64,000 nucleotides of DNA from Isoetes taiwanensis (lineage: Eukaryota; Streptophyta; Lycopodiopsida; Isoetales; Isoetaceae), in assembly GCA_021234155.1 (NCBI GenBank), contig JAJEKV010000001.1, positions 15,661,203 to 15,725,202 of the forward strand. Reading direction: 5' to 3'. The notes under the pieces were generated by a model. It was given only the letters and a program-made list of their open reading frames with translations, made no database searches and had not been told where the DNA came from. Positions 10,349-53,265 of this stretch are shown here, piece by piece. How positions within the stretch are numbered: position 1 is the first letter of the stretch; every line of letters starts with the position of its first letter. The translations under genes and the position numbers were made by a program.

Positions 10349-11444
10349 CTATGAGAAACCTAATATGCTACTTGCAAAATATGAAGCATAAACCTTGTCG
10401 GGAAGGGTTTGTATATCCACATTCCTTCCTGCACATATGTTCAGACAATGTTGTAGCTCTTCCCTGTAGGAGAAAAAATGACTTCAATACGAGACCTTTT
10501 CTTTTCTGCTCATTGGTTTAGTGATATTTGATGTAAAGTTTGAAGCCCACCCTCTACCAAGAATATCATAAAAGTTTTGAACTTACATTTTCATTGCTTC
10601 GCCTTCTGATTGGAGGATAGTCAACAGTGCCTCACGAGGAACTTTACCTGATGTTTCCCCACTGATTGCCTATACCAAAAACCATTGAACTTAAAAAAGC
10701 GAACAGCAGGCACAAAAAAAAATCTGATTTGAGTACAGAATAAGGATTTATATACACTCTATATTGCATACTGTAAATGCACTTTGAAGTAGATCATTGA
10801 ACTAGGATTTATATATAGTCTATATTGCATACTGTAAATGCACTTTGAAGTAGATCATTGAACTCCATGGTAGGCCTGTGGTTGACATATAGAGTAACAA
10901 AATCTTGAAACGAAATTCTTTTTGGTGGATCTAGCCCTTTCCGGGTGCTGTAAAAACACAACTTCTTCCATCAGTTGAGTTCTCATATGCCTCGTCTAAT
11001 TTGTAAGTTGTTCTCACAATGGAAGAGAAATTTCATTTAAGATGTCAGCGACATAAGCATTTGATGGATACACTCCCAAAGAATGCAATAAGTTTGGTAA
11101 CTGTCCTAGTGATATCGTTTGGTCTATATTACGTTCCTCCAGTGAATCTTCCCCCTAAAAAAATACGAAAACTCTTTAGATCATTAAATTCACTTAACCC
11201 AAACGAAGTTACATATTGGAAAAGAAAGAATTCCATTCAAATTCTCCAAAACATATAGCATGCTTAAATAATTATATATACCTTCTCACAAATTTGTGCA
11301 CAGAAGAAATACTCTCGTAAGTTCTCCAAGATCATTTTACCCTCTCTACCTGGTGGTAACATGGGATAAGTTCCAGCATGCGCCCACTGATCCTCTAAGA
11401 CAGGCTCTAGAAAAAGCATGCTCAACCTCCAAACATTGACGACA
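10349..11444 (-). CDS. CFAP251: CFAP251 exons 20-24, C-terminal EF-hand-like region
   Basis: Residues about 721-924. Helical segments match the calmodulin-like C-terminus of the animal protein: LPNLLHSLGVYPSNAY, ISFQDFVTLYVNHRP, GKVPREALLTILQSEGEAM and the final ASSILGFS before TAG. Classical acidic calcium ligands are not evident in the loops, so calcium binding is doubtful. Each join restores frame: 11154-11018 ends in phase 2 before a GTGAGA donor and 10947-10833 begins with the completing base. Confidence 0.9.
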
Positions 11445-14400
11445 CTGAAAATTCAATGGTAGTTGCATTCAAAAATGTGGAAGAGTGATATTTCTACATA
11501 AACAAAAGTTACCTGATCTTGAAGCATGAAAGATCACCTGTCAGAACCAGCAGTGATCACGTACTTCTTGTCATAGGAAACTGCAATAGATGATATTGGA
11601 CCTGCATGCGCTATAACTCCTAGTGTATGGAGATTTGACACATTTGCCGTTGGAAACGTCATGATTCCTATGACTTGCTCTTTGGCAGAATACAAAAGGT
11701 AGTCCTGAGTGCATCATGCAGATGTGTCAAGAGGCTTCCGATTTGTTATTCTTCCTCACAATATCATTTCAGACAACCATTTACCTGCCCTGATTCCTCA
11801 TCAGAGATCTTCAGCAGTTTGTTAGTTGGGCTTCCAAAGATCGGGCCCAAAAGCGTCTTTTCTAAATAATGCTTATCAATATCATAGATGCGCATTTTAT
11901 AGCTTCCATCAGCAATTATCACATGCATCTGTGTTATGTTACATCAACAAACACAGATGATGAAATCAATAATGTGAGGATGCATTTTCGACAAATGGGA
12001 CGCTTTCTTTAGACAAATGGGTACTATTCTTTGCTAAAATGAGGATTTGTACCTCCCCAGTCTCTTTTTCTGAGTAGGAAAACATAGATGATGGCATTGC
12101 CAAGGAAGATAATGTTAATGTGGCTTCCAATTTAAGTCCATGTTCATCACAGGATTTTGCCAAATTGTACTCCACCACCATCTTATCCTGCATGGAGAAA
12201 TGCAATCCTCAGCCACAATAGCAAAGTCCAATTCCATAAACAAACAATTTTTAGTATTTCATGCTAAACCTTTGATGAACAACAATGTTTGATGCAAACA
12301 AGAGAGTACGGACTTGACACATACCTGACCAAGTGAAAATAATCGGTTACGTCCTCCCCTATCAACAGTGAAGTGCAAATCAACGATGGGTCTTGCATGC
12401 GACCTGTACTTTCCAACGTAACTCCACTTGCTTTCCTGCCTCCATGAATGGCGCAACAATATAAGGCTTGTAAAAATCAGGATAGTCCAAACTACAAGTT
12501 TAAGATTTTGAGTGATATACATACACCGTGTCTCAAGCATAAAAGGCAAACAGCATGGCTACCATCTGCAGTTGCCAAAAGCTGCCCATCTTTTGAAAAT
12601 ACCATCTGTAAATAACTATCGTCAATGTGTGCCAGAAATTTGAGATATTTTTACTTACTAGTCATGGTCCATGCCTCTTATAACTTTTACCAAACATGAG
12701 TAGTAGTTCGAAAATCCAAAGCGACTTCATAGTTTACAGTTGAAGTGCTTTTTTATGTTCTTTAGATCTTCTCCTCTTACATCAAAAATAGTCCTAACCA
12801 TATGGACATTTTGTTCCTAGGAAAGTTGGGACAATGCGGGTCAGCTGGCTTGTGAACCTGTGCAAAGAATAAAAACTTATGCATAACGTCCTCGCTCTAA
12901 ACTCTCTTCCCGATCTCTGAAACAGCTATAACATGGTCATCCAACTGAACTAAGTCATTTAGAAAATATGTCGTACTGATATGAGGTAAGATGGTTCACA
13001 CAATCGTTAACCTATTCCTAGGAAAAGTGCAGCTTAGAGATGAGGGAGGAGACTAAAGATGTGACCAACAGAAACATCTTCTAACCTTTCAAAGGTTATT
13101 GAGAACGTTTGTAAAACTGCAATAACAACTGCTTCCCTAGAAAGCTTCAAGGGAAGAAGTTTTAGCATCCGAGTAATCAACAGGCTTTGGTGAATAGCCA
13201 AAAAGCTTATCCAGATTCACTTTATGTTTCCATGTTAAAAGAAATACTTCCATGTGCATTTATGAAACTTTTGTTTAAAACAAGACTTTTTATGAATAAT
13301 ATGACCGGGTCGTTAACGATCTCAAAGAGTAGCAGAGTTGGGAAGCATACCTTAGAGATGCCTGATGAAGCAAATGAGAAACTTTGCAAGTCTTGAAAGG
13401 TATCTGTTGATACCAACTGCAAGAGACAAAGCATCAAAACACAAAGAAGACCTCACATGCATTACATAACATCATCGATAAACTGCAAGATACGTCAATA
13501 AGCACAAATCCTAAAGTCTGGTTATTGTACGGTCTTAATAACATAGTTTGTTGGGGATGATACTAACGATATGGTACTTTTACCAAGGTTGGAAAGTATC
13601 AAAGTTAAACAAAATGCCGGCCAAAGCACAGTTTGTATCCCAATACAGCTACAAGAGACAAGATTGCTTTGGCCGCAGATTGGAAGCTAATTGCATTAGA
13701 GTTGCAACCTAGAACCACTGCAATTGAATACAATAGACAATAGCTTGATAAGGATGCTTGTTCTGGTATAACTGGAGTAGATGCATTTGGACACAACCAC
13801 TAGCAATCTTGATAAAGTCATATAAGTAGTTTTGCACACACCTGATATGAATTTACATTCTTAGCTTCTTTTTGCATTCACATGCCTTAAAAATTGTGAG
13901 TTGCCAAAACTACTTGATCAGTTGAACACACCTTGACAATGCCGGAAGTGAACCCACAAGCAATTAATGAGCCTAAAGGAGAGTATGTAACTGTGGTTGC
14001 CTGAAGAAATAAGACCTGGAGTTAGTAACTTAACTGGATAAAATAAGGCCACAACTGACTGCACAAATCCTTTTCAAATTAGAACATAGGAACAAAGGGT
14101 TACTCTTAAGTGAGAAAATTTTCTGTGCCGCATAAGAGTCCGTGAACTGTAATCATGCACCTTCTCAAGCAAATATCTCATGTTAGGATCAGCTTAAGAA
14201 AAATAACATAGATAGTAAAGCACATATATTGAAAACCTGAAGAAGACCATCCAGGCTAATAGTTGCAAAACATGGAAGTTTGGGATGTGCAGACATTGAT
14301 TGCACAGTCTCTGGCATATATTCAATGATTTCCTCACCCTGGCCAAGATACACCATTGTCTCTTAATTCTGTTCCCGCAAAAACCAAACATACCCAACAT

Positions 14401-17400
14401 AGCACCAAAAGCTAAAAGTTCAGACCATCCAATCAATAGCAGGACCCATTTAGTAATTATGTATCAAGTACACTGTACTAGACAAATTTACTCCAAAGAT
14501 AAATTGCATCCAATAGTTAGTCGCACGCTGGACTTGCAGTTAATAAAATATAATAAGATACCTTGCTTTAACAAAAAGTTCAATGCACTACCCCACCTAT
14601 AAAGAGCATGATGCATTCTCAAGCTTGTGAATAGTTTGGGAATTTTCTTATAAAACACACTTCATAACCTCATTAGATGCAATGGGGGCAAACCTTGGAA
14701 TCTGGCGATCCTGGTTGCTCTTCAAATAAACCAGCATGGAGTAAACGAATATGTGCTTTTTCTGTACCCACTACAAAGTGAGGTATCCTCAGCAAGTGTG
14801 ATGATTCCTCACTTTCGTCATCCCCAATCAATGAAAATGAGATGGAAGATATTTCTCCTGCAAATAATTATAGATATAACAATGAATGTCTTTAGCATGC
14901 AAGACGAAGATAAAAGGAGGAGTTGTTTTGACATGTTTCAAACTTGCAAAGCAAAATGGAACAAGTCAATTAAGGACAATCTCGTAGCAGAAGATAGATT
15001 CGTGCCATGTATAACTACTGTAAGCCCCATGTGACATGTGATCTTGAGTGTGCAGGACTCCAATTAACAGAAGTGAGAATACAAATGGACTGAAAATAAA
15101 TTTGAAGGACTAGCTGATATAACCATAAAAGGCAACATAGGGATAAGGATAGTAAAACATGTAATCCTAATCCTATTTTACTCAGGAAACATGCATTGTC
15201 CACTATCAAGGAAATGTGTTCCTGTAGGATGCTATTGGCAGCATAGTACACTAAGATCTTCTGTTATACACCAACTTTAACAAAATGCTTGTGGAGTCGC
15301 AGGCACAATCAAACACAAAGCTGTGCATAAACTCCGAACTGCCAGGGGTTTGTTCAAATATCTCACAGCTGAACATCCAACTGACCATTGTTGATCATTT
15401 TGAATGTACTATGAGGTTATATGAAGCAAGTGTATAGAGCTTTCACTGTTGAATTTGAAAATAACACTAGCTGAATGAAAGAAACGCTTAACTGACTAAG
15501 CTGATTGGGCAAAAGTTAGGCCGAGTGGGGTCATAGATCCTACTTTATTTCATTATCCAGCATAGAAAACCCTTCATGGAATTGGTTGTAGACGTTCAAC
15601 CTCCTTCAATGCTTTTTCTATACCGATGACACTTGTCATCAACTTCATGATGTTTCGCATCCATGGGAAGAAAGCATATTTCTTGCCCTCCAAAGAATTG
15701 AAACTACATGAAGTCCAAAATTGAGCATTTTAGTCGAACATCTATTGATGAAAGAAAAAAATAAGGAAAGAAAGGAACTTCTATGAAAGACCCTTTGGTT
15801 ATCTAGGTAAAAGATCAAAATAAAATCCAAATACTGAAGACCAAAGCAACCCAACATTGTCTCTAACAGCGGGAGCAGAGTCTGATGTAATACTAACTCT
15901 TTTGAGTCGTCAAACTCTGTGAAGACCCCGAAAGAAACCCATCTAGATTCGCTTTCCCCCTGTGGATCAAATTTGCAGTGCTTGAAATTCCTGTTGCTTG
16001 AGTAGAGGTCTCCTACATTCAGCCATCTCTTGAAGATAAAGGACCACACACTTCTAATCCACAATCAAATTAGCTTTGGTAAGGATGTGGCATCTTTGAA
16101 AGAGAATAGAACCAGCCTCATATGTCATAAACACATGAATATTCAGCTTCAACTTCAGCTTCAGCCAAGTGGCTATTCTTTTTGAGCGACCGTCCTTGGG
16201 TACGGCTTCTTATCCTGTCGCATTTCAAGCTAAAGAGAAGAAAAAGTATGGTCATCCATTGCCATCATCATTAAACTATATTTGATTTTTCCTTGGTTCA
16301 AAGACTGCCATTAGTAACTGCCAGAGATATGCCTGTACACAAGTAGTTCAGATCATATAATGTGAAGAATCCAATTTAGCCAATCTAAATGCCACAATGT
16401 TTCTCATTGCAGGAAGCCTTATTTAATGACTGGGCAGACTCACATGCCACTTCCCAATACTTCAGTTGTTGATGCTTTATAATCAGTTAGTACAAATGAG
16501 ATTGGCTTGATAGACCTTGGTTTAAGGCGTGATATTTTGTGACGTAGTGCTGCAAAGTTATGTTTCAGGTGTTGCAGAGACGCACTTACAACATCTACCA
16601 CTCTGCCATATTAGGAACTAGTGACGTCGAATTATATGTGTCTCAAGCCGTTGGACCAGATATGTGATTTTCCATTGCACGAAAGACATGATGTAAAGAT
16701 GAATGTGGATTGCTCCATGAACCCCCTTAAATTAAGTCTTCACCCCTAAGTTTGTATATATCCTTAGAAGATATTTTCCATGATGCTTTATATTTCTTAG
16801 TTGGATACTCCATTCATATTGAAGAGCAAGAGATGTTAAAATTCTTCTGATCCACAGCATGGTATTCAGGAAATAGATGTATGATATTAGGTGCATGACA
16901 TATAAGTAGTTTATTGCAGGAACCTAGTTGGAAGTACAAAGTATCGGGTGTGCGTAACTAACATACCAGCGTCCATCTCTTCTAACCAACCAGCAATTCC
17001 CAGCCGTGAATCATATATATGCAAGTAACCGTCAGCACCACCAGTTGCAACATAAGACTTGATTGTAGTCAATACTGTAATCTTTGTACTGTGCATTTTC
17101 ACTACTTTAGTTGCATGCAGTAACCTTGCTTTTTCCATCTTGCTTGTCTTATCAAGCTTAGCAGCCTTCTCGGACTCTTTCCTACTAATAGTCATATGAA
17201 GGATTGTCTTCATAACGTCCACAGAAAGCAACTTAGAATGCTCACAACTTAAAAGTTTACCTGCCTTCTTCCCACACCACCACATCACCATCACTAGTTG
17301 CAGTAATAGCAAACTGGGTGTTGGGCACAAACACAGAAACCGTAAAATCGCCCACATTCTGCTTCAGCTCACCTTTATTCAGTATGGCTTTTACACCTTG

Positions 17401-20351
17401 TAGTGAAATTTCTGGGGCATTGCTTTGAACCTGGAAAAGTAATACTCGTCAGCAGCTAGACTAAGACATCAATCTGTGGAGATGTCATTCTGCAGACCTC
17501 TCGATATAACCATATAATTGCATTCTGTTTGCTGTTGGTAATCAGTTCATGCTGGTTGTTTACATTAAAGCGTACACAGTTCTGCAGAAAAGCTCCAAAG
17601 CATGGATCAGATTAATTAACATGTTCAAAGAACATTATGATAATCAAAATCGTCATCTCTCAGATGTACTGTCAGAAACTAGATCAGCGAACTCAGTCTT
17701 TGGGTCAGTTTCAATATACATCTTTGCCTGTTGTTGTGTCAACTAGGCAGTTTCCTATTGACCTTGCTGGTAGATGAAGAATTCATTACAGTCCTCCGAG
17801 ACATTATGCAGTCTCTTTGATGTGTTTGAGACATGTAGGTGCTCCAAGTACAGCTCGGTGAGGTCTTGCTTTTTTGGTCTGGGGTTTGTGTGGTGGTAAG
17901 GTAACTTGCCTGAGTTCTCCTAGAGGGAACAACTGCAGCTGCAATAGGTTTATTCTTGGATAAACCAATATCCCAAATGGATAATTCTTGTGGTTCTCCA
18001 TATACTGTACAAGTCATTACGTTCATAATTAAACTTTTATTACATATAGGAGACAGTATTATATACAAAACACCCTGTCCAAGCAACCAAAAGACACAGC
18101 ACATGTAAGATGCAATTGCATTATTGAAGTGAAGCATGCTGCAATGCATCTAAAAAATATAATGACTGAACTTACAAGAACTAAATAATGTAGCAATAAG
18201 TAGCCCATCTGATGATACATCAATGGCCACATTACAAACCACAAGCCGAAACTATATATGCATCACAGTACAACATCAACAGAACAGGTCGTGAAAGACC
18301 TTGTCTGAACACATATGCAGGATGCATTTTTTGTTATTTGAAATTGTGCGTGTATACTAAATGATAAATTCACCACACACTTACAAGAATCACTTAATGT
18401 GGCAATAAGCAACCCATCTGATGATACATCAATAGCTACTATACCGCCTGTCCTATCCTGTGAAACCGCTCTCAAAACCTGCATTCTTTAAAATATATTA
18501 CAATATTGAACGAATGCATTATTCTCCATAATTTGACCTGATAAAGAATCACCTGTCCAGTTATGGTGTCCCAGACAACAAATGTGGCATCTGGTCCGCA
18601 ATCGGAGGAAATAAGCCGACTCCTGTCTGGAGTGGTGGCTAGGCATCTAATTTGATGCACATGTCCTTGTAAGATGGTCTACATATAACAGCCATTAAAT
18701 AACAGGTAATCTCAATATTTCAACCTGAAAATGTACAAAAATAGCCTAATGATTTTTGGGAAACCTGATTCTGAGAAGCACAGTGATAGATAACAATACA
18801 ATTCCCTGCCACATAGCTTATTATATCACGTGATGGACTCCGGAGGTCAACCACTCCACTGTTTACTTTTGTGGAAAACCCATATATACGATGAAGCTCC
18901 TGCATTCTACAAAAGGTAAGCAACCCAAATAGTTTTAATTTTCTTTTTTAGTGTCATCCTCATTCCTCTATTTCTAAACATTTTCAATTTTGGCATGTTG
19001 CTTATACTGCACCCTTCATTGTGCTAACAAAATGCCAGCATAATTACCAAAGGATTAGACCGCTGCATTATAAATGTTGTGTTTCACCCTGAGTTCTGGC
19101 TGCCATTGAAATTGGCCAACTTGATCATCTTTGATCCTGATATGATAAACAGGCAACTATGAAGAGCAATGCAGATAAATCAAGGTCAAAGAACCCTCGA
19201 ATTATTTAAAATATATACAAGAAAGTAGTGTAGCCAGTGGCACCGCATCCAATGTGGTGTTCAGTAAATTGGGCAAATTCAAGGAAAAGGGAAAATAGAG
19301 TCTGTTTGAACATGATGTGGGGATTGAACCCACAGTTGTACCATCAGAAAATCAACCTTTAAAACATTGGAAAACTTAGAAAGGAATTAGATAACATTTA
19401 GATGCATCCAATTTTGGAGATTGTAAGTGAAAGAAAAGAGCTTTACACACAAGCATAGACCTATGCTTTAGACCACGAGGAGATGCCACTACATGAAAAC
19501 ATTTTCTTTAATAGAGCAATAATAAACCAATTAACTGAACCAGTTAACTGGAGTGGCATGACGCAGCAATAGTCAGAATCATCGAGTAAACAAACTTACC
19601 ATTGGAAAGTACATAGTTGCCAATGGTTATATGCAAAGGGGATCTGCTGAACCTTTTTAAAGTTTCCTTAAAGGATGACTAACAGTTTCTGTTCATGACC
19701 ATGTCAAATGATAAAACTGATGATATCCGAGTGACATTCCAGAAGGATATATAGGCGGCCATGGAGAGCCTATTGGTCTTGCTTAAATGCTACAGTTCTC
19801 ATACAAGATGCTCTCGAGCATCTAGTCCTTTATTTTTGCGTACACCTTTTTTATGAGATCCATAGTGCCAACTGTTGCATAGATATCCCATAATAACTGT
19901 TGCATAGATAATTGACAACAAAATTCCACTGTGATAAAGAACTCTTCTATATAAAAACTGTTGCTGGTAGAAAATATGAAACCCTTCTGCCTTCCAGATG
20001 ATAGCACCAAGATGTCTTCTAGTATAATCGCAGAGAAAAAACCTTTAATGGCTTCCGAAGGGACAAATAGCAAAAGCCGAAGAAATTCAAACATATAAAG
20101 TAAAACTAATTCAAGTAGATGAAGATATATCAACAGCTGAGAAGCCATTACATGAAGCCATAAGAAGCAAGCAGAGATTCCAAACCCTAATGGCCAGAAC
20201 AAAAAAGTGCATGTGGAATATAAAGCAAACTTCATTCTAGGCAATCGAACTACCTGATGAATGAAACTGCCACTGAGTACTCCTCCAAATATCTACATGA
20301 TAGGTGGACATCGGAAACGAACAATGGGTATGATGCAGCCCTGTTATTCAT
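10349..20351 (-). CDS. CFAP251: CFAP251 (WDR66) homologue, axonemal WD-repeat protein, 24-exon model
   Basis: Exons in transcript order: 20351-20254, 19136-19088, 18899-18765, 18678-18553, 18478-18385, 18004-17910, 17581-17498, 17430-17261, 17181-16967, 14857-14694, 14338-14237, 14160-14104, 14000-13932, 13416-13351, 12605-12525, 12435-12325, 12187-12053, 11928-11785, 11704-11538, 11444-11282, 11154-11018, 10947-10833, 10669-10587, 10463-10349. All phases agree, giving 924 codons plus TAG. I placed the exons by reading the translation against human CFAP251 as I remember it. Landmarks in the same order are GPDATFVVWDTITG, ITVLTTIKSYVATGGADG, KTLLGPIFGSP, PPGREGK and SILGFS. The family is part of the calmodulin- and spoke-associated complex at the base of radial spoke 3. 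One intron is GC-AG; all others are GT-AG. Human CFAP251 is about 225 residues longer, mainly an acidic N-terminal region absent here. The first two exons are the least certain. Confidence 0.9.
10743..10864 (-). repeat. 61-bp tandem duplication covering an exon end and its splice donor
   Basis: Copies 10743-10803 and 10804-10864 differ at two positions (about 97% identity). Each contains the last 30-odd bases of exon 22 and the donor ACA/GTATGC. My model uses the donor in the copy next to the exon body (10833/10832); the second is at about 10772/10771. Confidence 0.9.
11538..18899 (-). CDS. CFAP251: CFAP251 exons 3-19, WD40 propeller region
   Basis: Residues about 50-721 carry degenerate WD repeats, e.g. 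CGPDATFVVWDTITG, ATSDGDVVVWEEG, SYVATGGADGYLHIYD, SLIACGFTSGIVK, FSKDGQLLATADGSH and SYDKKYVITAGSD. Order and spacing parallel animal CFAP251, whose WD repeats are expected to form two propellers. A Lys/Glu-rich insert (residues about 284-315, KESEKAAKLDKTSKMEKAR) lies between a WD blade and the VLTTIKSYV motif. The 57-bp exon 14104-14160 supplies the VHDYSSRTL strand linking its neighbours in phase. Intron 9 is by far the longest (2.1 kb). Confidence 0.9.
14858..16966 (-). other. CFAP251 intron 9
   Basis: Longest intron, 2.1 kb, between a GCTG/GTATGT donor and a TTGCAG acceptor. It holds an unassigned minus-strand frame of 139 codons at 15645-16064 without WD-repeat or transposase motifs that I recognise. 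It may be chance or a decayed insertion. Confidence 0.7.
17908..17909 (-). other. GC splice donor (GC-AG intron)
   Basis: Exon 6 ends ...ACTCAG at 17910 and is followed by GCAAGT, the consensus of GC-AG introns. Phase 0 joins it to exon 7 (17581), giving TQ-NCVRF, which parallels VQ-NYVTF in the animal protein. The nearest GT alternative breaks the frame. Confidence 0.75.
18176..18251 (-). other. Duplicate of CFAP251 exon 5 (alternative or relic exon)
   Basis: Copy of the 3' part of exon 5, about 83% identical over 60 bp, encoding VAIDVSSDGLLIATL as in exon 5. A TATAG acceptor before 18251 and a TTCTT/GTAAGT donor after 18176 give a 76-bp exon entering in phase 0 and leaving in phase 1, exactly as exon 5 (18478-18385) does. 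The upstream part differs and the acceptor lacks a good pyrimidine tract. Confidence 0.6.
19088..20351 (-). CDS. CFAP251: CFAP251 exons 1-2 (tentative N-terminus)
   Basis: Exon 1 (20351-20254) starts at an ATG and ends in phase 2 at a CAG/GTAGTT donor. Exon 2 (19136-19088) follows a TATCAG acceptor, supplies the one missing base and ends in phase 0 before exon 3. Encoded pieces are MNNRAASYPLFVSDV and QVGQFQWQPELR. Support is only splice signals and phase; this part of the family is poorly conserved. Another upstream first exon is possible. Confidence 0.45.
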
Positions 20352-20744: not shown

Positions 20745-20960
20745 TCAGAAATAGAATAGAATGGAATAGAAGGGTTTTATCATCCACGGAGATCGATCGG
20801 CCTATGGGACCCAACATGCGCAGCGGACTTATTACTGTTCGGGTTAAAAACCCCCTCAAGGAGTTTTGGGTCGTGACAAAAATAAGAGGGTTGTCAAACT
20901 ATACAAACATACACCATGAGAAAAATATATACATGTCATGCGAGCGCCCGAGGACATAGT
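20745..20960 (-). mobile_element. Retroposon 3' end (pentanucleotide-tail family)
   Basis: Minus strand: GGGTCCCATAGGCC, CTCCGTGGATGATAAAACCC, then TTCTATTCCATTCTATTC. The block extends at least 100 bp upstream with similarity to the copy near 43.4 kb, including a GGGGTTTTTAA stretch. It lies just upstream of CFAP251. Confidence 0.65.
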
Positions 20961-22620
20961 TGATCCCGCTGACCCTTACGACCCATTGAAGCGAAGTAAT
21001 TCAAAGATCCATACCGGTGACCGCAGGCTTCGACATTCATGTATCGACCGTCGGTCCCCGACTAACCGCGTAGCATGCTCGGATTTGACCCTATGCTGAA
21101 CAGTTCTGAAGGGTGTGGCATTCATCTTCCATTATTCCCACTTGCCAGTGTTGATAAAGTCTCTCATGGGCAGCTCCCCAATCCATCTCCCTGTCTCAAT
21201 TTGGAGGCTTATGTGCACCTCGCGGCGTAATTGAGGCAATGGATTCGCTTGCTGGGCAGATGGGTGTGCATGTATCGCCAGGGCCCCGCCCAACGGGCTT
21301 TATGTGGCACCGTAATATGCCGCCTTGATCTCGCTCAAGGGCGCCGGCCCCGCAAAGCTTGCCGAGGAAGCATGTGTCAAGGTATCAAGCTCAAGCTATG
21401 GCGTATCGCTTTGCACTTGATGCACCGCGTCTCCCGCAGACGCTTCATTTAGACAACCATCGGTAGCCTTTTTTTCCGCCGCCAGGTGCCCCATTGCCAT
21501 GGTGTAAGCCGTGTTAGGAGGCGAAGGCCACCTATATTGACCAACTGGAAGTAGATGATGTAGTTTATCAAGGGCCTCCTCCTAAGAGTAAGAAGCATAT
21601 CTCTTGTAACAATATTTGATATGGCAATGTGGAGCTCACCCTTAGTGTCGCTCGTAGCTTTCTCGCACCGCCCAAGTCATTTCAAGTGGTATGACACCAT
21701 CTGCCCTAGATCAACCCTATATAAGTGAGGACATGCCCATTAATGCTCAATAGGCAAACGTAGTCCAATCACACTCTCCCTCTCCACCTTGTGCTATTGT
21801 TCTGCATGGCATACAAAGGCTTCAAATTTTGATGCTGGTAATCTACGGAAGTACCCATATAGCGCATCGAACTCACTCCCAAATATTTATAAAGCAAAAT
21901 TACCCACACATTCGCCCTCGATAAGTCGCAGTAGGGCTTTGTCAGTCACGGTTGGATGATATGAGGACCACCTTTCTCTTGGTCAATTTGACGCATATCG
22001 ACCGCCCCAGAATGGCCTAGGCATCAGATGGCCGCATGCCCCCTCAATGTAGGCTAGAGGTCTATGTCATCAAAGATAATGCTTTTGCCCGGGTGATCCT
22101 GATAAACTTGAGCCTGCCCATTACCGCCAGCCGCCCAACCGATCATCAATGTACGTACCACAAGGTAGGAGAGAGAGGGCATCCCCGCACTCGACATACT
22201 ACTCTCTAATGGTTGGTTTGCTCTGCTGTACCCGAGAATATCTCATATACCCTGCATAATCGATATACAGCCCACATATAATTTATCACTGCCGCAACCT
22301 TGCCCAAAAACGCTTCGATGCAACAAGCATCAAGAGTCTTGGAAGTCGATGAAAGAATAATAAAAGTCTTGCCGATGGTTCCGTCCTCAACCGTAGAGCT
22401 GCCGCAGTACTCAATCCCACAAGATGGGTCAGCACTTCTGCTCGCCTTCAATCATTCATTGCTATCAATCCCTGGCCAGTAGCTTGCTTAATACCGAAAT
22501 GACCATGATTGTGTAGTAATCGCGGGCAAAGGTAGACACCGCCTTGTGTAGATTCGGGACAACCCTACTAGTGGTCCACCTGCGGTAGGAAAAACCCTCC
22601 CTAATCCTCGCTTGAACATG
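20960..22620. other. GC-richer degenerate DNA, unassigned
   Basis: Locally richer in GC than its neighbours, with many short broken frames on both strands, e.g. an 81-codon minus frame at 22206-22451. This looks like decayed transposon coding sequence, but no motif identifies the family. Confidence 0.35.
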
Positions 22621-23950
22621 CAGTTAGTCTGGTGCTATGGACTCCACCCTGCCCAATTTGAGCAACTATGCTTGCATACCATCCAGGTCTGGTGTTTTTC
22701 CATTGGCTAGATATTGTAACATTCTATATTCCTACACTAAACTTCGCGATCTTATAATCTTGCTATATTTCCTCGAGAGGGAATACAATGTGGCATCTCT
22801 GGATACATTGAGTTTCTTATGTGTGTGTACACGAGCTCGGATTGCTTATTGCATTTCTTATTGCTTGAACTAATATCTGAGCATTGTTCCTTCATGGCCT
22901 AGTATGGTGAGAAGCTCCCTATCTCAAATTGCAATGAGTGAGAAGCTCTCCAGCTCTATTTGGCATGGTTTGCATATGTCATGGTATAGTGCTTATGTAA
23001 TGCTTTATGGTGCATGATATTCATGAAAATGTCACGTTGATTTACGGCCTAAGGCCACAAAAAATATTTTTTGGCTAAGATAAGTAATGTGATAGAAATG
23101 ATAAATGCTTCCTATTGTACAAGTTTGTGTATACTGTATATTAAGGTTTGCAAAATACTATAAGGTTTGAGATAATGTACTTAATGGTGTTAATTTTGTA
23201 CATGTATTGTAAATTTTTTAGGACTCACGCCTCGCATAACTCAGAATATAACGCAAATCAAAGGAGGCTTAAGGGGATTTAATTTAATGTAAGTTAAATG
23301 CAATGGTTTGTGTTAATAATGTTACGGTAGTTGGTGTGTTAATGGTTTATGTTAACTAAAATTTCTACTCTTCGCAAATTTTAAGGATGGTGTGTAGTGT
23401 AGACATAGACATTACATAATACTCTTAATGATGGATAATGTATCATAGCCTCAGATACAATATATCATAATATAACCATAGAAAGATAAATTAATATGTG
23501 AAGCAACAAGAATTGAGATTTTTGGAACCATCGTGATCGGTGCTATAATGCTTATTCCTAAAGGACATGTATCACCTCGGTAGTGAGGCTTCAAGATGCC
23601 ACTAATCGACACACTTCTATGGAATTTATACACCAATGCGAAAAAATGAGAAGAGCATCTACCTAAACTAAGTATTACGCAATTATAGAAGCTTTTAACT
23701 ACATTCGAAATGCACAAGTACATGCAATTGAAATGCACAAGAAAGATACGCATAAGAAAAGTAGAAGGAAAAACCCAATTATTTTGAATAAAGATTATTC
23801 GTGACATAGCTTCAAATATGTAGGAAGCATGTCGTATCTTTACTTGTTGAAATAGTGCAAGAGTTCAGATTCCCTGTTTCCAAAGGTGCACCAGCGAATG
23901 CGAATAGACATAGGTCCAGGCCCGCTCCCCAAGGCTGAATTATTCGTGCA
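22620..23950. other. AT-rich DNA, no gene recognised
   Basis: No open frame with recognisable motifs. A 118-codon minus frame at 23451-23807 has no features that I can interpret. Confidence 0.4.
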
Positions 23951-37070: not shown

Positions 37071-38039
37071 CCAGGTCAGCCAAGTTGTCGGCGCCACTTC
37101 GCACGTAAAAGGTGGAGTATCTAGGTCATGTGATCTTCACAGAAGGCATCTCAAATGCATCTCAAGATTGAAGGCCGCCATTCGGCCGGGCGCCAAGAAT
37201 GCGTATGAAGTCGTGGTTTCGCCTAGCGGTGTACTACAGAAGTTCGCTGGGAAGAACTTTTACAAGATAGCAGCCCCGCTAATGCACTGACGAAAAGGTA
37301 GAAGGTGAAAGATTGCAGAGCATTGGCACAAGAAAGCCTGCTAAAAGGGGTTTGGAATCGCTGAAGGAAGCTAACAAATGTTCCCCGCCTTAACCCCCCG
37401 CCGACCCGAGAAAGATAAGCTTGTAGCAACAGATGCAGTAAGATAGCCGCATTGTGTGCAAAGGCGGCGCAAGAAGAGTGCAGGTAGCCGCGATGATTCG
37501 TGAAGATGAACTTATCGTAGACGCCGCTTACCCAACGACGCATCGAGTTGCTTAAGGCTGTCGCAGCATGAATAAGGAGGCATTCTGGGAAGGAAGTTCC
37601 ACTGGATACCGTAATTAATGTAGAAAGCCTCCTAATATACTGAACCACACCTCAATCCGAGGCAAAATGAGATGGATGGAGTTCCTCAAGAATATGACTT
37701 TGATATAGCTCCATGCTTCCGGGAAGCTCAACAATGTGGCAGCGGTATGCTTCAAGGCATCCCCTGACAACTAGAGTGCATTGTAATGCAATTTCCACGC
37801 CTCTCCAGCCAATTTGGTAAGAGAGGATTAAAGAGTCCTGCCAACGGATGTGGATTTCGTGGAAGTATGGGCAAAGCCTTCAAGGAGTGCCAGAAATCGA
37901 TAAAGAGCCGAGGCCTCTTTGCCATTATAAGAAGGAAGGCAACCTGTTATACCGAGCAAGAACAAGTTAAAGGCATCCTAATCATCAGGTAAGGAAGTTG
38001 ATCCTCCATGACATTAATGTTCTCAATAGCTGGCCACAT

Positions 38040-38620
38040 GCGATTCATGAAAACATATTTCAAAGTAAGCGCAAAGAAATTTATTATTGGCCAAAGAATA
38101 AGAAGCAAATAGCCGCTACATCAAGGAATGTCACTATGCCAGCGCATCTAAAGCCGAGCAGCTCAATTCCAGGCATTAGAGCCATTAGCGCTAAACGCTA
38201 AGTGTGGGAGGTAATCAAAGATGGATTTCATCACAGATCTCAAGAACAAATGTGAGAGGCAAGGATGCCTTGATGGTAGTGGTTTAATGTTGTCGAAGAT
38301 GGTACATTTTGTGCCTTGCGTAACCGCCAGATACAGCCATGGATACAGCAAAGCTCTTCACCAAAAGAAAGATCTTCGTGCCTACGGTACGCCGCAGATC
38401 ATCTCCGGCGTGGATCCGGTTCATGAGCGCTTTTGGCAAGACCTCCTTTGCTAATGCATCCGCACGGTGCTATCCATGAGACGCATACCACCTCGCAGGA
38501 TGGGCCGACGGAGCGACCAACAGGATTTTAGAGGACATGCACTTAAACTGGCGTCTGAATAAGCAAAGTATGTGGGAAGAATTTATTCACTTCAGGAGTT
38601 TGCATACACAGCACCAAGGA
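38040..38620 (+). pseudogene. Integrase remnant (gypsy)
   Basis: The segment starts with a zinc-finger-region piece (IYYWPKNKKQIA, about 38080). At 38221 MDFITDL begins the core, and near 38280 a KMVHFVPC piece follows. GTPQIISG and DP...FWQDLL lie near 38385-38450, and a YHLAGWADGAT-like remnant follows. All lie downstream of reverse transcriptase, in several frames with stops. Confidence 0.75.
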
Positions 38621-52071: not shown

Positions 52072-52929
52072 GCTAATTTTCGAACTCCGCCAAGGCTTGA
52101 TATAAAATGTAGATGGTAGGGCTATGCTTGTAAAAGGGATGGGAAGAATCAAAGCTATGATGACACATGAACTAGAGGTAGTATCATTAAAAATGTGCAT
52201 GGATCATTTTGATGAGCATGAGAGGAAAAAATTGGAGGGGGAGGGGGGCTAGCAAGAAAGAGAGTTTATATTCGATAGAGTTTTCTACACCGCTCAATAT
52301 TTTGGCAAATATGGAAGTTCAAATTGCAAGATTGAAACATTTTTAGTTATTTATCATGTCCAATCGATTCTCTTTGTGGTAGCAAGTTGACAAAATGTTT
52401 TACATGCCTTATAAATTTTTGTATATGATATACACCTTCCAAATGGTACCTTCTATCAAAGAGTAGGCTGCAACATTTGCAAAATATGCTTGAGATAATT
52501 ATCTGAAGTATATGTATTCCTATGGCTTACTCTAGGGATGGTGTAGGGCAAGTCCTAAAACTGGCAACTAGTGTGTGACTGGACCCAAGACTAAGACATT
52601 TCTTAAAAGTGCCTAGAAAAAGTGGTGTAAGTTCGTATAGTGCAAAGTTAGGCGTTGGAGAATGAGATTGTGCAAATTAAGGCGAAAAGTGCAAAACCTT
52701 GGTATCAAAGACGCTTAATGTAAATGTTGATGTTGAGGCCTATTTTCAACGTAAAAACTACTTGCATTACATTTGGCCTCCTAATCTAATCATGTGTACA
52801 TGACAATGATTCTTTTGAGGAATGTTTAGTAGATTTTGCATTCAATACTTCTAGACATTTACCCAACATTCTAAACATTCACCCAACATTCTGCCCATAT
52901 AATGTAATATCAATGGTTTTCACATAACA

Positions 52930-52951
52930 AAAATGTCACTTTAGGTGACAT
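52930..52951. other. Short inverted repeat
   Basis: AATGTCAC and GTGACATT separated by about five bases, just left of the minisatellite. Confidence 0.7.
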
Positions 52952-52959
52952 TCTCACGT

Positions 52960-53265
52960 CTTAACACTGCCTCCACACACATAGCACTGCCTCCACACAC
53001 CTAGCACTACCTTGGCACACTGATAGTGTTTCCACATGAATGCCATTCTTGGGTAAACACTGCCTCCACACACCTTGGTGTGAATGCCATTCTTGGGTAA
53101 ACACTGCCTCCACACACCTTGGCACACCGATAGTGTTTCCACATGAGTGCCATTCTTGTATACCCAAATTCACACTGCTTCCACATGAGGTTTCCACATG
53201 AGTGCCATTCTTGTATACCCAAATTCACACTGCTTCCACATGAGAAGTGACATTCTTGTATACGG
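52960..53265 (+). repeat. Complex minisatellite of nested units
   Basis: Built from recurring modules: CACTGCCTCCACACACC, TGGCACAC(T/C)GATAGTG, TTTCCACATGA(A/G)TGCC, ATTCTTGGGTAAA and ATTCTTGTATACCCAAATTC. They combine into repeats of about 50-60 bp with partial higher-order duplication. All three minus frames stay open over much of it, giving Cys/Trp-rich peptides (VWRQC, MWKHYQC), an artefact of the repeat rather than evidence of a gene. Confidence 0.85.

What the first reader, a model, noticed from the sequence alone, without database searches (positions are those of the whole stretch)
10349..20351. Complete axonemal CFAP251 gene in a retrotransposon-rich plant genome
Twenty-four exons join in phase into a 924-residue protein collinear with animal CFAP251, from the first WD blade to the last ILG motif. 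The gene serves only motile cilia or flagella, so the host almost certainly makes swimming sperm. Intact reading across 10 kb of decayed surroundings implies selection.
Basis: partly seen in the sequence, partly recalled or inferred. Interest (0 to 1): 0.8.

Follow-up and report, generated by a model that had tools for sequence, protein, structure and literature searches.

The report
Quillwort sperm-flagellum gene CFAP251
The stretch holds a complete gene for a known protein of swimming tails (CFAP251), in a genome that matches a quillwort, a plant whose kin make swimming sperm, so it is real but expected.

Summary
The gene is real. On the minus strand, 22 exons (18905 down to 10349) join in phase into 877 residues without an internal stop; 20 of 21 introns are GT-AG, one GC-AG. 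Its best match among solved structures is FAP251 over nearly its whole length (E 1.1e-143); the next family, FAP52, is at 2.4e-14. The claimed 24 exons and 924 residues are not supported: relatives leave no call for two more 5' coding exons. The window's assembly (1,658,258,908 bases, 1110 contigs) matches the published Isoetes taiwanensis assembly (1658.30 Mb; 204 scaffolds, 909 contigs). Isoetes sperm are multiflagellate, so the inference of swimming sperm fits, and the gene is expected. Dynein heavy-chain and RSP3 exons occur in the same genome. CFAP61 and CFAP91 domain searches found nothing, with no working control. Side finds: a part-copy of exon 3 in intron 3, and CFAP251 fragments on three other contigs. 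No expression data or dN/dS. New member of a known kind; low interest.

The parts
18765..18905 (-). exon 1 (ATG at 18905; 47 aa)
   Evidence: aligns with FAP251 from its residue 11
18553..18678 (-). exon 2
   Evidence: 20 of 42 aligned residues identical to Chlamydomonas
18385..18478 (-). exon 3
   Evidence: 12/31
18176..18251 (-). part-copy of exon 3 inside intron 3 (candidate alternative exon 3b, or decaying duplicate; not in the 877-aa model)
   Evidence: 49/60 exonic bases plus 6/6 donor bases shared; flanks 6/30 and 11/40; repeat D2
17910..18004 (-). exon 4 (followed by a GC donor)
   Evidence: 11/31
17498..17581 (-). exon 5
   Evidence: 9/28
17261..17430 (-). exon 6
   Evidence: 25/52
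16967..17181 (-). exon 7
   Evidence: 19/62
14694..14857 (-). exon 8 (after the 2109-base intron)
   Evidence: 14/51
14237..14338 (-). exon 9
   Evidence: 11/34
14104..14160 (-). exon 10 (weak homology; acceptor tract GCTTGAGAAG)
   Evidence: 4/19
13932..14000 (-). exon 11
   Evidence: 10/23
13351..13416 (-). exon 12 (weak homology)
   Evidence: 4/22 Chlamydomonas, 1/22 animal
12525..12605 (-). exon 13
   Evidence: 7/27 Chlamydomonas, 13/27 animal
12325..12435 (-). exon 14
   Evidence: 15/37
12053..12187 (-). exon 15
   Evidence: 12/45
11785..11928 (-). exon 16
   Evidence: 16/48
11538..11704 (-). exon 17; its first 18 codons (11704-11651) match the calmodulin-binding segment predicted in Tetrahymena Cfap251
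   Evidence: 23/55; 10 of 18 residues by eye against the peptide printed in PMC9776847
11282..11444 (-). exon 18
   Evidence: 15/45
11018..11154 (-). exon 19 (C-terminal region after the WD repeats)
   Evidence: 15/46
10833..10947 (-). exon 20; its end lies in a 61-base tandem duplication
   Evidence: 9/38
10587..10669 (-). exon 21
   Evidence: 12/28
10349..10463 (-). exon 22, with the ILG motif and the TAG stop
   Evidence: 12/36

Best explanation
This is the CFAP251 (FAP251/WDR66) gene of a quillwort, almost surely Isoetes taiwanensis, and the only full copy seen in its genome. It encodes a WD-repeat protein with a C-terminal region shared by the family. In other organisms that protein sits at the base of radial spoke 3, near CFAP61 and CFAP91, and its loss weakens beating. 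Here it most likely does the same in the flagella of the multiflagellate sperm. Shown: the complete frame, the family, the match of the assembly, no second full copy among the matches scored, and dynein and RSP3 exons in the same genome. Inferred: that it is transcribed as modelled, that it acts in sperm, and its place in the spoke.
For: 22 exons in phase, 877 aa; 20 GT-AG introns and one GC-AG. PDB sequences: FAP251 (8glv_LY) E 1.1e-143, query 5-876 to target 11-895; five more CFAP251 chains down to 3.1e-78; then FAP52 at 2.4e-14 (best 60 of 139 matches shown). Of the residues identical in the Chlamydomonas and animal proteins, 154 of 254 are kept here. Collinear raw tblastn pieces. Own-genome search with the protein: 25 matches scored, 22 in this gene, 3 are exon 12-13 fragments. 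Dynein heavy chain: 16 matches. RSP3: 3 matches side by side on one contig. Host match; multiflagellate Isoetes sperm. Role at the RS3 base: PMC9776847, passages.
Against: No transcript data, so the splice model rests on homology and consensus sites; exons 10 and 12 match weakly (4/19 and 4/22 to Chlamydomonas). The Pfam domains of the partners CFAP61 and CFAP91 were not found; no control genome rang either, and repeats at a looser cut-off did not complete. No dN/dS could be computed. The reverse search of the whole genome with Chlamydomonas FAP251 did not complete.
Confidence: 0.95

Rival explanations
1. It is a recently silenced pseudogene whose frame has not yet decayed.
For: No expression evidence; part-copies and a small duplication lie inside the gene.
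Against: No frame break in 2634 coding bases, whereas the C974 fragment has gaps of 10 and 1 bases within exon 13. No other full copy was seen that could carry the function, and the plant group makes flagellate sperm.
Confidence: 0.03
2. It belongs to another WD-repeat family (FAP52, EML, CFAP57, CFAP44).
For: All share WD repeats; PF23414 (EML second propeller) passes its cut-off narrowly, 93 against 90 bits.
Against: 266.6 bits for the weakest CFAP251 chain against 55.3 for FAP52, and full-length collinearity with FAP251.
Confidence: 0.005
3. The intact gene has been co-opted to a non-flagellar role, as proposed for some ciliary proteins kept in plants without cilia.
For: 21 such proteins are reported (PMC3268115, passages; list not seen).
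Against: The host lineage still makes flagella, and dynein and RSP3 exons are present.
Confidence: 0.015

Closest known systems
FAP251 (PDB 8glv chain LY; species recalled as Chlamydomonas reinhardtii)
   Same: Aligned nearly from end to end (query 5-876, target 11-895), including a short N-terminus; 291/843 aligned residues identical
   Different: Has an insert the model lacks (before GQGPLRP) and lacks stretches the model has; its gene structure was not examined
CFAP251/WDR66 of animals (PDB 8j07 chain d2; species recalled as human)
   Same: Collinear WD region and C-terminal region; 253/801 aligned residues identical
   Different: Long N-terminal extension before the match (which begins at its residue 262) that is absent here
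Cfap251 of Tetrahymena thermophila
   Same: Its predicted calmodulin-binding segment matches the start of exon 17 at 10 of 18 residues, counted by eye from the peptide printed in PMC9776847
   Different: Full sequence not compared here; that paper could not pull down calmodulin with the protein
FAP52/CFAP52
   Same: Axonemal WD-repeat protein; the best match outside the family
   Different: E 2.4e-14, query 4-230 only

Membership tests
CFAP251 (FAP251/WDR66) | Best match to CFAP251 proteins, ahead of other WD-repeat families | tested here: met
   Six best of 139 matched PDB sequences (60 shown) are CFAP251, five by label and one by its alignment; the next is FAP52 with E 2.4e-14
CFAP251 (FAP251/WDR66) | Collinearity from the first WD blade to the C-terminal ILG motif | tested here: met
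   Query 5-876 to 8glv_LY 11-895
CFAP251 (FAP251/WDR66) | Reciprocal best hit within the host genome | tested here: inconclusive
   Chlamydomonas FAP251 finds this gene within the window and the model finds no second full copy, but the whole-genome reverse search did not complete
CFAP251 (FAP251/WDR66) | Partners CFAP61 and CFAP91 in the same genome | tested here: inconclusive
   PF16092: 0 matches of 5 candidates; PF14738: 0 of 0 candidates; no control genome rang
CFAP251 (FAP251/WDR66) | Radial spokes and dynein heavy chains in the same genome | tested here: met
   RSP3 PF06098: 3 matches on C1078; dynein heavy chain PF03028: 16 matches. Whether each is axonemal was not tested
CFAP251 (FAP251/WDR66) | Location at the RS3 base; loss impairs motility | not testable with these tools
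   Needs sperm proteomics, cryo-ET or a knock-out

The most novel reading that the evidence does not exclude
The copy of exon 3 in intron 3 (18251-18176) is a working mutually exclusive exon, so that the quillwort makes two forms of CFAP251 differing in one WD blade. It would enter and leave in the same phases as exon 3 and has its own AG and GTAAGT. In the run of 15 residues that both encode (VAIDVSSDGLLIATL) all four differing codons are synonymous, and the flanking intron shows no similarity in register (6/30 and 11/40). Against: 3 of the 19 codons compared change the residue (D/S, S/F, I/N), the copy is six residues shorter where a loop between strands is expected, its acceptor tract looks poor, and no expression was tested.
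Probability: 0.06. Interest if true: 0.4.

Novelty: new member of a known kind. Interest (0 to 1): 0.2.

Why it matters
It gives a gene model for a radial-spoke-base protein in a lycophyte whose group makes multiflagellate sperm, which helps in tracing which flagellar parts each plant lineage kept. Ginkgo is reported to lack several radial spoke proteins while keeping flagella (PMC9023351, passages), so base proteins such as CFAP251 in other sperm-bearing plants are useful markers. In itself it is what one expects in such a plant.

Tried and rejected
Exon 10: a 32-base exon at 14192-14161 broke the frame and was replaced by 14160-14104; the end of exon 13 moved two bases, from 12527 to 12525, to the donor GTATGT.

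Exon-only conservation of the dispersed fragments: exons 12 and 13 in L019 are 66/66 and 81/81 identical to the gene, and exon 12 in L020 is 66/66, while intron 12 differs (702/738 and 427/467). This looked like selection on the fragments, but the identical runs (160 and 170 bases in L019, 106 in L020) reach into the introns and intron mismatches cluster, so I do not claim it.

Transposon domains: 20 stop-free open frames against Pfam, of the 161 frames of 70 aa or more listed, gave only one weak match below its cut-off (DUF1182, E 0.053). By eye, 37971-38451 (+) resembles a broken Ty3-type integrase; that is recalled and not supported by Pfam.

Rfam at gathering scores and the tRNA scan of the window: nothing. 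A viral-contig scan with the protein: 5 pattern matches, no relative. Structure prediction was not run; without relatives to align it would have been a single-sequence fold.
Full report
OBSERVATION. The minus strand between 18905 and 10349 splices into a 2634-base coding sequence of 22 exons (877 aa plus stop). Of the 21 introns 20 are GT-AG and one (after exon 4) is GC-AG; introns run from 67 to 2109 bases. The frame has no internal stop, against 47 and 59 in the other two frames. I placed the exons by homology and consensus sites and then checked the phase, so the open frame is partly by construction. A test that does not depend on my splicing agrees: tblastn of Chlamydomonas FAP251 against the raw window gives 17 pieces, of which 13 (all with E 0.54 or better) lie on the minus strand in order from 18887 to 10355 and 4 (E 0.98 or worse) lie elsewhere. 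An animal CFAP251 gives 13 pieces; the 9 with E 0.18 or better lie in the gene, and of the 4 with E 2 or worse one is outside and one is out of order. The reversed window gives 1 and 2 pieces, none better than E 4.2.

FAMILY. Against 177,635 distinct PDB sequences, 139 match at E 0.001 or better (60 shown). The first six are CFAP251: 8glv_LY (FAP251, E 1.1e-143, query 5-876 against 11-895), 8j07_d2, 9d2f_K, 9fqr_Xj (labelled adenylate kinase 7 by its depositors, but its alignment follows CFAP251), 9e5c_5c and 9y6s_8w (3.1e-78). I saw the alignments of the first four. The seventh is FAP52 at 2.4e-14. Species of these chains are recalled; the call does not print them. In a three-way alignment, identity is 34.5% to Chlamydomonas and 31.6% to the animal protein; those two share 31.6%. 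Of 254 positions identical between them, 154 are kept here. Pfam finds the WD40 repeat over its cut-off and one EML propeller model just over its cut-off (93 against 90 bits). Exons 10 and 12 are the weakest parts (4/19 and 4/22 to Chlamydomonas).

EXON COUNT. The finding speaks of 24 exons and 924 residues, with an upper coordinate of 20351. The alignment with FAP251 starts at its residue 11 and at residue 5 of my model, so the relative calls for only a few more residues. A first coding exon at 20351 is possible but has nothing behind it. A 5' UTR exon upstream is plausible, because an acceptor-like TTTTGTAG lies just before the ATG.

HOST. The window is G000:C907:15661203-15725202 in an assembly of 1,658,258,908 bases in 1110 contigs. 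The Isoetes taiwanensis paper reports 1658.30 Mb in 204 scaffolds plus 909 unplaced contigs, 1113 in all (PMC8566536, passages): three pieces and about 0.04 Mb more. C907 is 53.1 Mb long; if the unplaced contigs come first, C907-C1110 would be 204 scaffolds. No name was given, so this is inference, but a close one. The same paper gives 38% repeats. Isoetes male gametes are multiflagellate (PMC8328431, passage). Non-seed plants make cilia for male gametes; [quoted passage not shown] PMC9023351, passages). In Marchantia a radial spoke protein homologue is cited as contributing to sperm flagella (PMC13190419, passages).

GENOME CONTEXT. Searching the genome with the protein gives 25 scored matches: 22 in this gene, two on C1073 and one on C34. 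A DNA search with 12509-13508 gives four: the gene, C1073 (93%, whole query), C34 (83%, query 1-613) and C974 (78%, query 899-977). C1073 has exons 12 and 13 with intron 12, C34 has exon 12 with part of intron 12, and C974 has pieces of exons 13 and 14 with gaps of 10 and 1 bases inside exon 13. So the window holds the only full copy seen; the tool scores only its best candidates. L019 and L020 also resemble each other outside the gene piece, which suggests a dispersed repeat that picked up part of CFAP251. In the same genome, dynein heavy chain PF03028 has 16 matches and RSP3 PF06098 has 3, side by side. CFAP61_N and CFAP91 gave none; these searches run exon by exon and no control genome rang, so absence is not shown. 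Looser repeats and the reverse search with FAP251 did not complete (call numbers in the Against line).

MECHANISM. CFAP251 was found with CFAP61 and CFAP91 in a calmodulin- and spoke-associated complex; in Tetrahymena, axonemes without it lack RS3 or, more often, part or all of the arch at the RS3 base, and beat frequency falls to about half (PMC9776847, passages). That paper also questions whether the three form a separate complex. The calmodulin-binding segment predicted there, which its pull-downs did not confirm, matches the start of exon 17 at 10 of 18 residues by eye. I infer the same spoke-base role in quillwort sperm.

NOVELTY. I found no paper describing CFAP251 in land plants in these searches: 'CFAP251' (77 papers, 20 listed), 'WDR66' with 'land plants' (0), 'FAP251' (26, 15 listed), and FAP61/FAP91/FAP251/plants (4); broader flagella-and-plant searches are. 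I saw listings and, for seven papers, passages; I read no paper in full, and the published annotation of the genome was not at hand. The gene is expected in such a plant.

OTHER FEATURES. Intron 3 holds a part-copy of exon 3 (18251-18176). It shares 49/60 exonic bases and the 6-base donor, but 6/30 and 11/40 in the flanks; of 19 codons compared, 12 are the same, 4 differ synonymously and 3 change the residue. It could be an alternative exon, but it lacks six residues and I hold this unlikely. A 61-base tandem duplication (96% matches) repeats the end of exon 20 with its donor; the first donor keeps the frame of the model, and reading past it meets a stop within the first copy.

Noticed in passing
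window 18251-18176 (minus strand): Part-copy of exon 3 within intron 3, with matching phases and its own donor; similarity stops near the exon edges.
   Followed up: partly
window 10743-10864: 61-base tandem duplication, 96% matches, covering the end of exon 20 and its splice donor.
   Followed up: partly
L019 4148-5213, L020 4164-4905, L028 8804-9224: Fragments of the CFAP251 exon 12-14 region on three other contigs; L019 and L020 also share sequence outside the gene piece, as if a dispersed repeat had picked up part of the gene.
   Followed up: partly
window 37971-38451 (+): Open frames that by eye resemble a broken Ty3-type integrase; no Pfam match at E 0.1.
   Followed up: partly
window 20749-22711 and L031 4552-5886: Dispersed repeat in three pieces at 67-75% identity next to the 5' side of the gene.
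   Followed up: no
window 52849-53244: Four short tandem arrays (periods 20, 20, 44 and 55 bases), two of them 100% identical.
   Followed up: no
PDB 9fqr chain Xj: Labelled adenylate kinase 7 but its sequence aligns as CFAP251; perhaps a naming slip in the entry.
   Followed up: no
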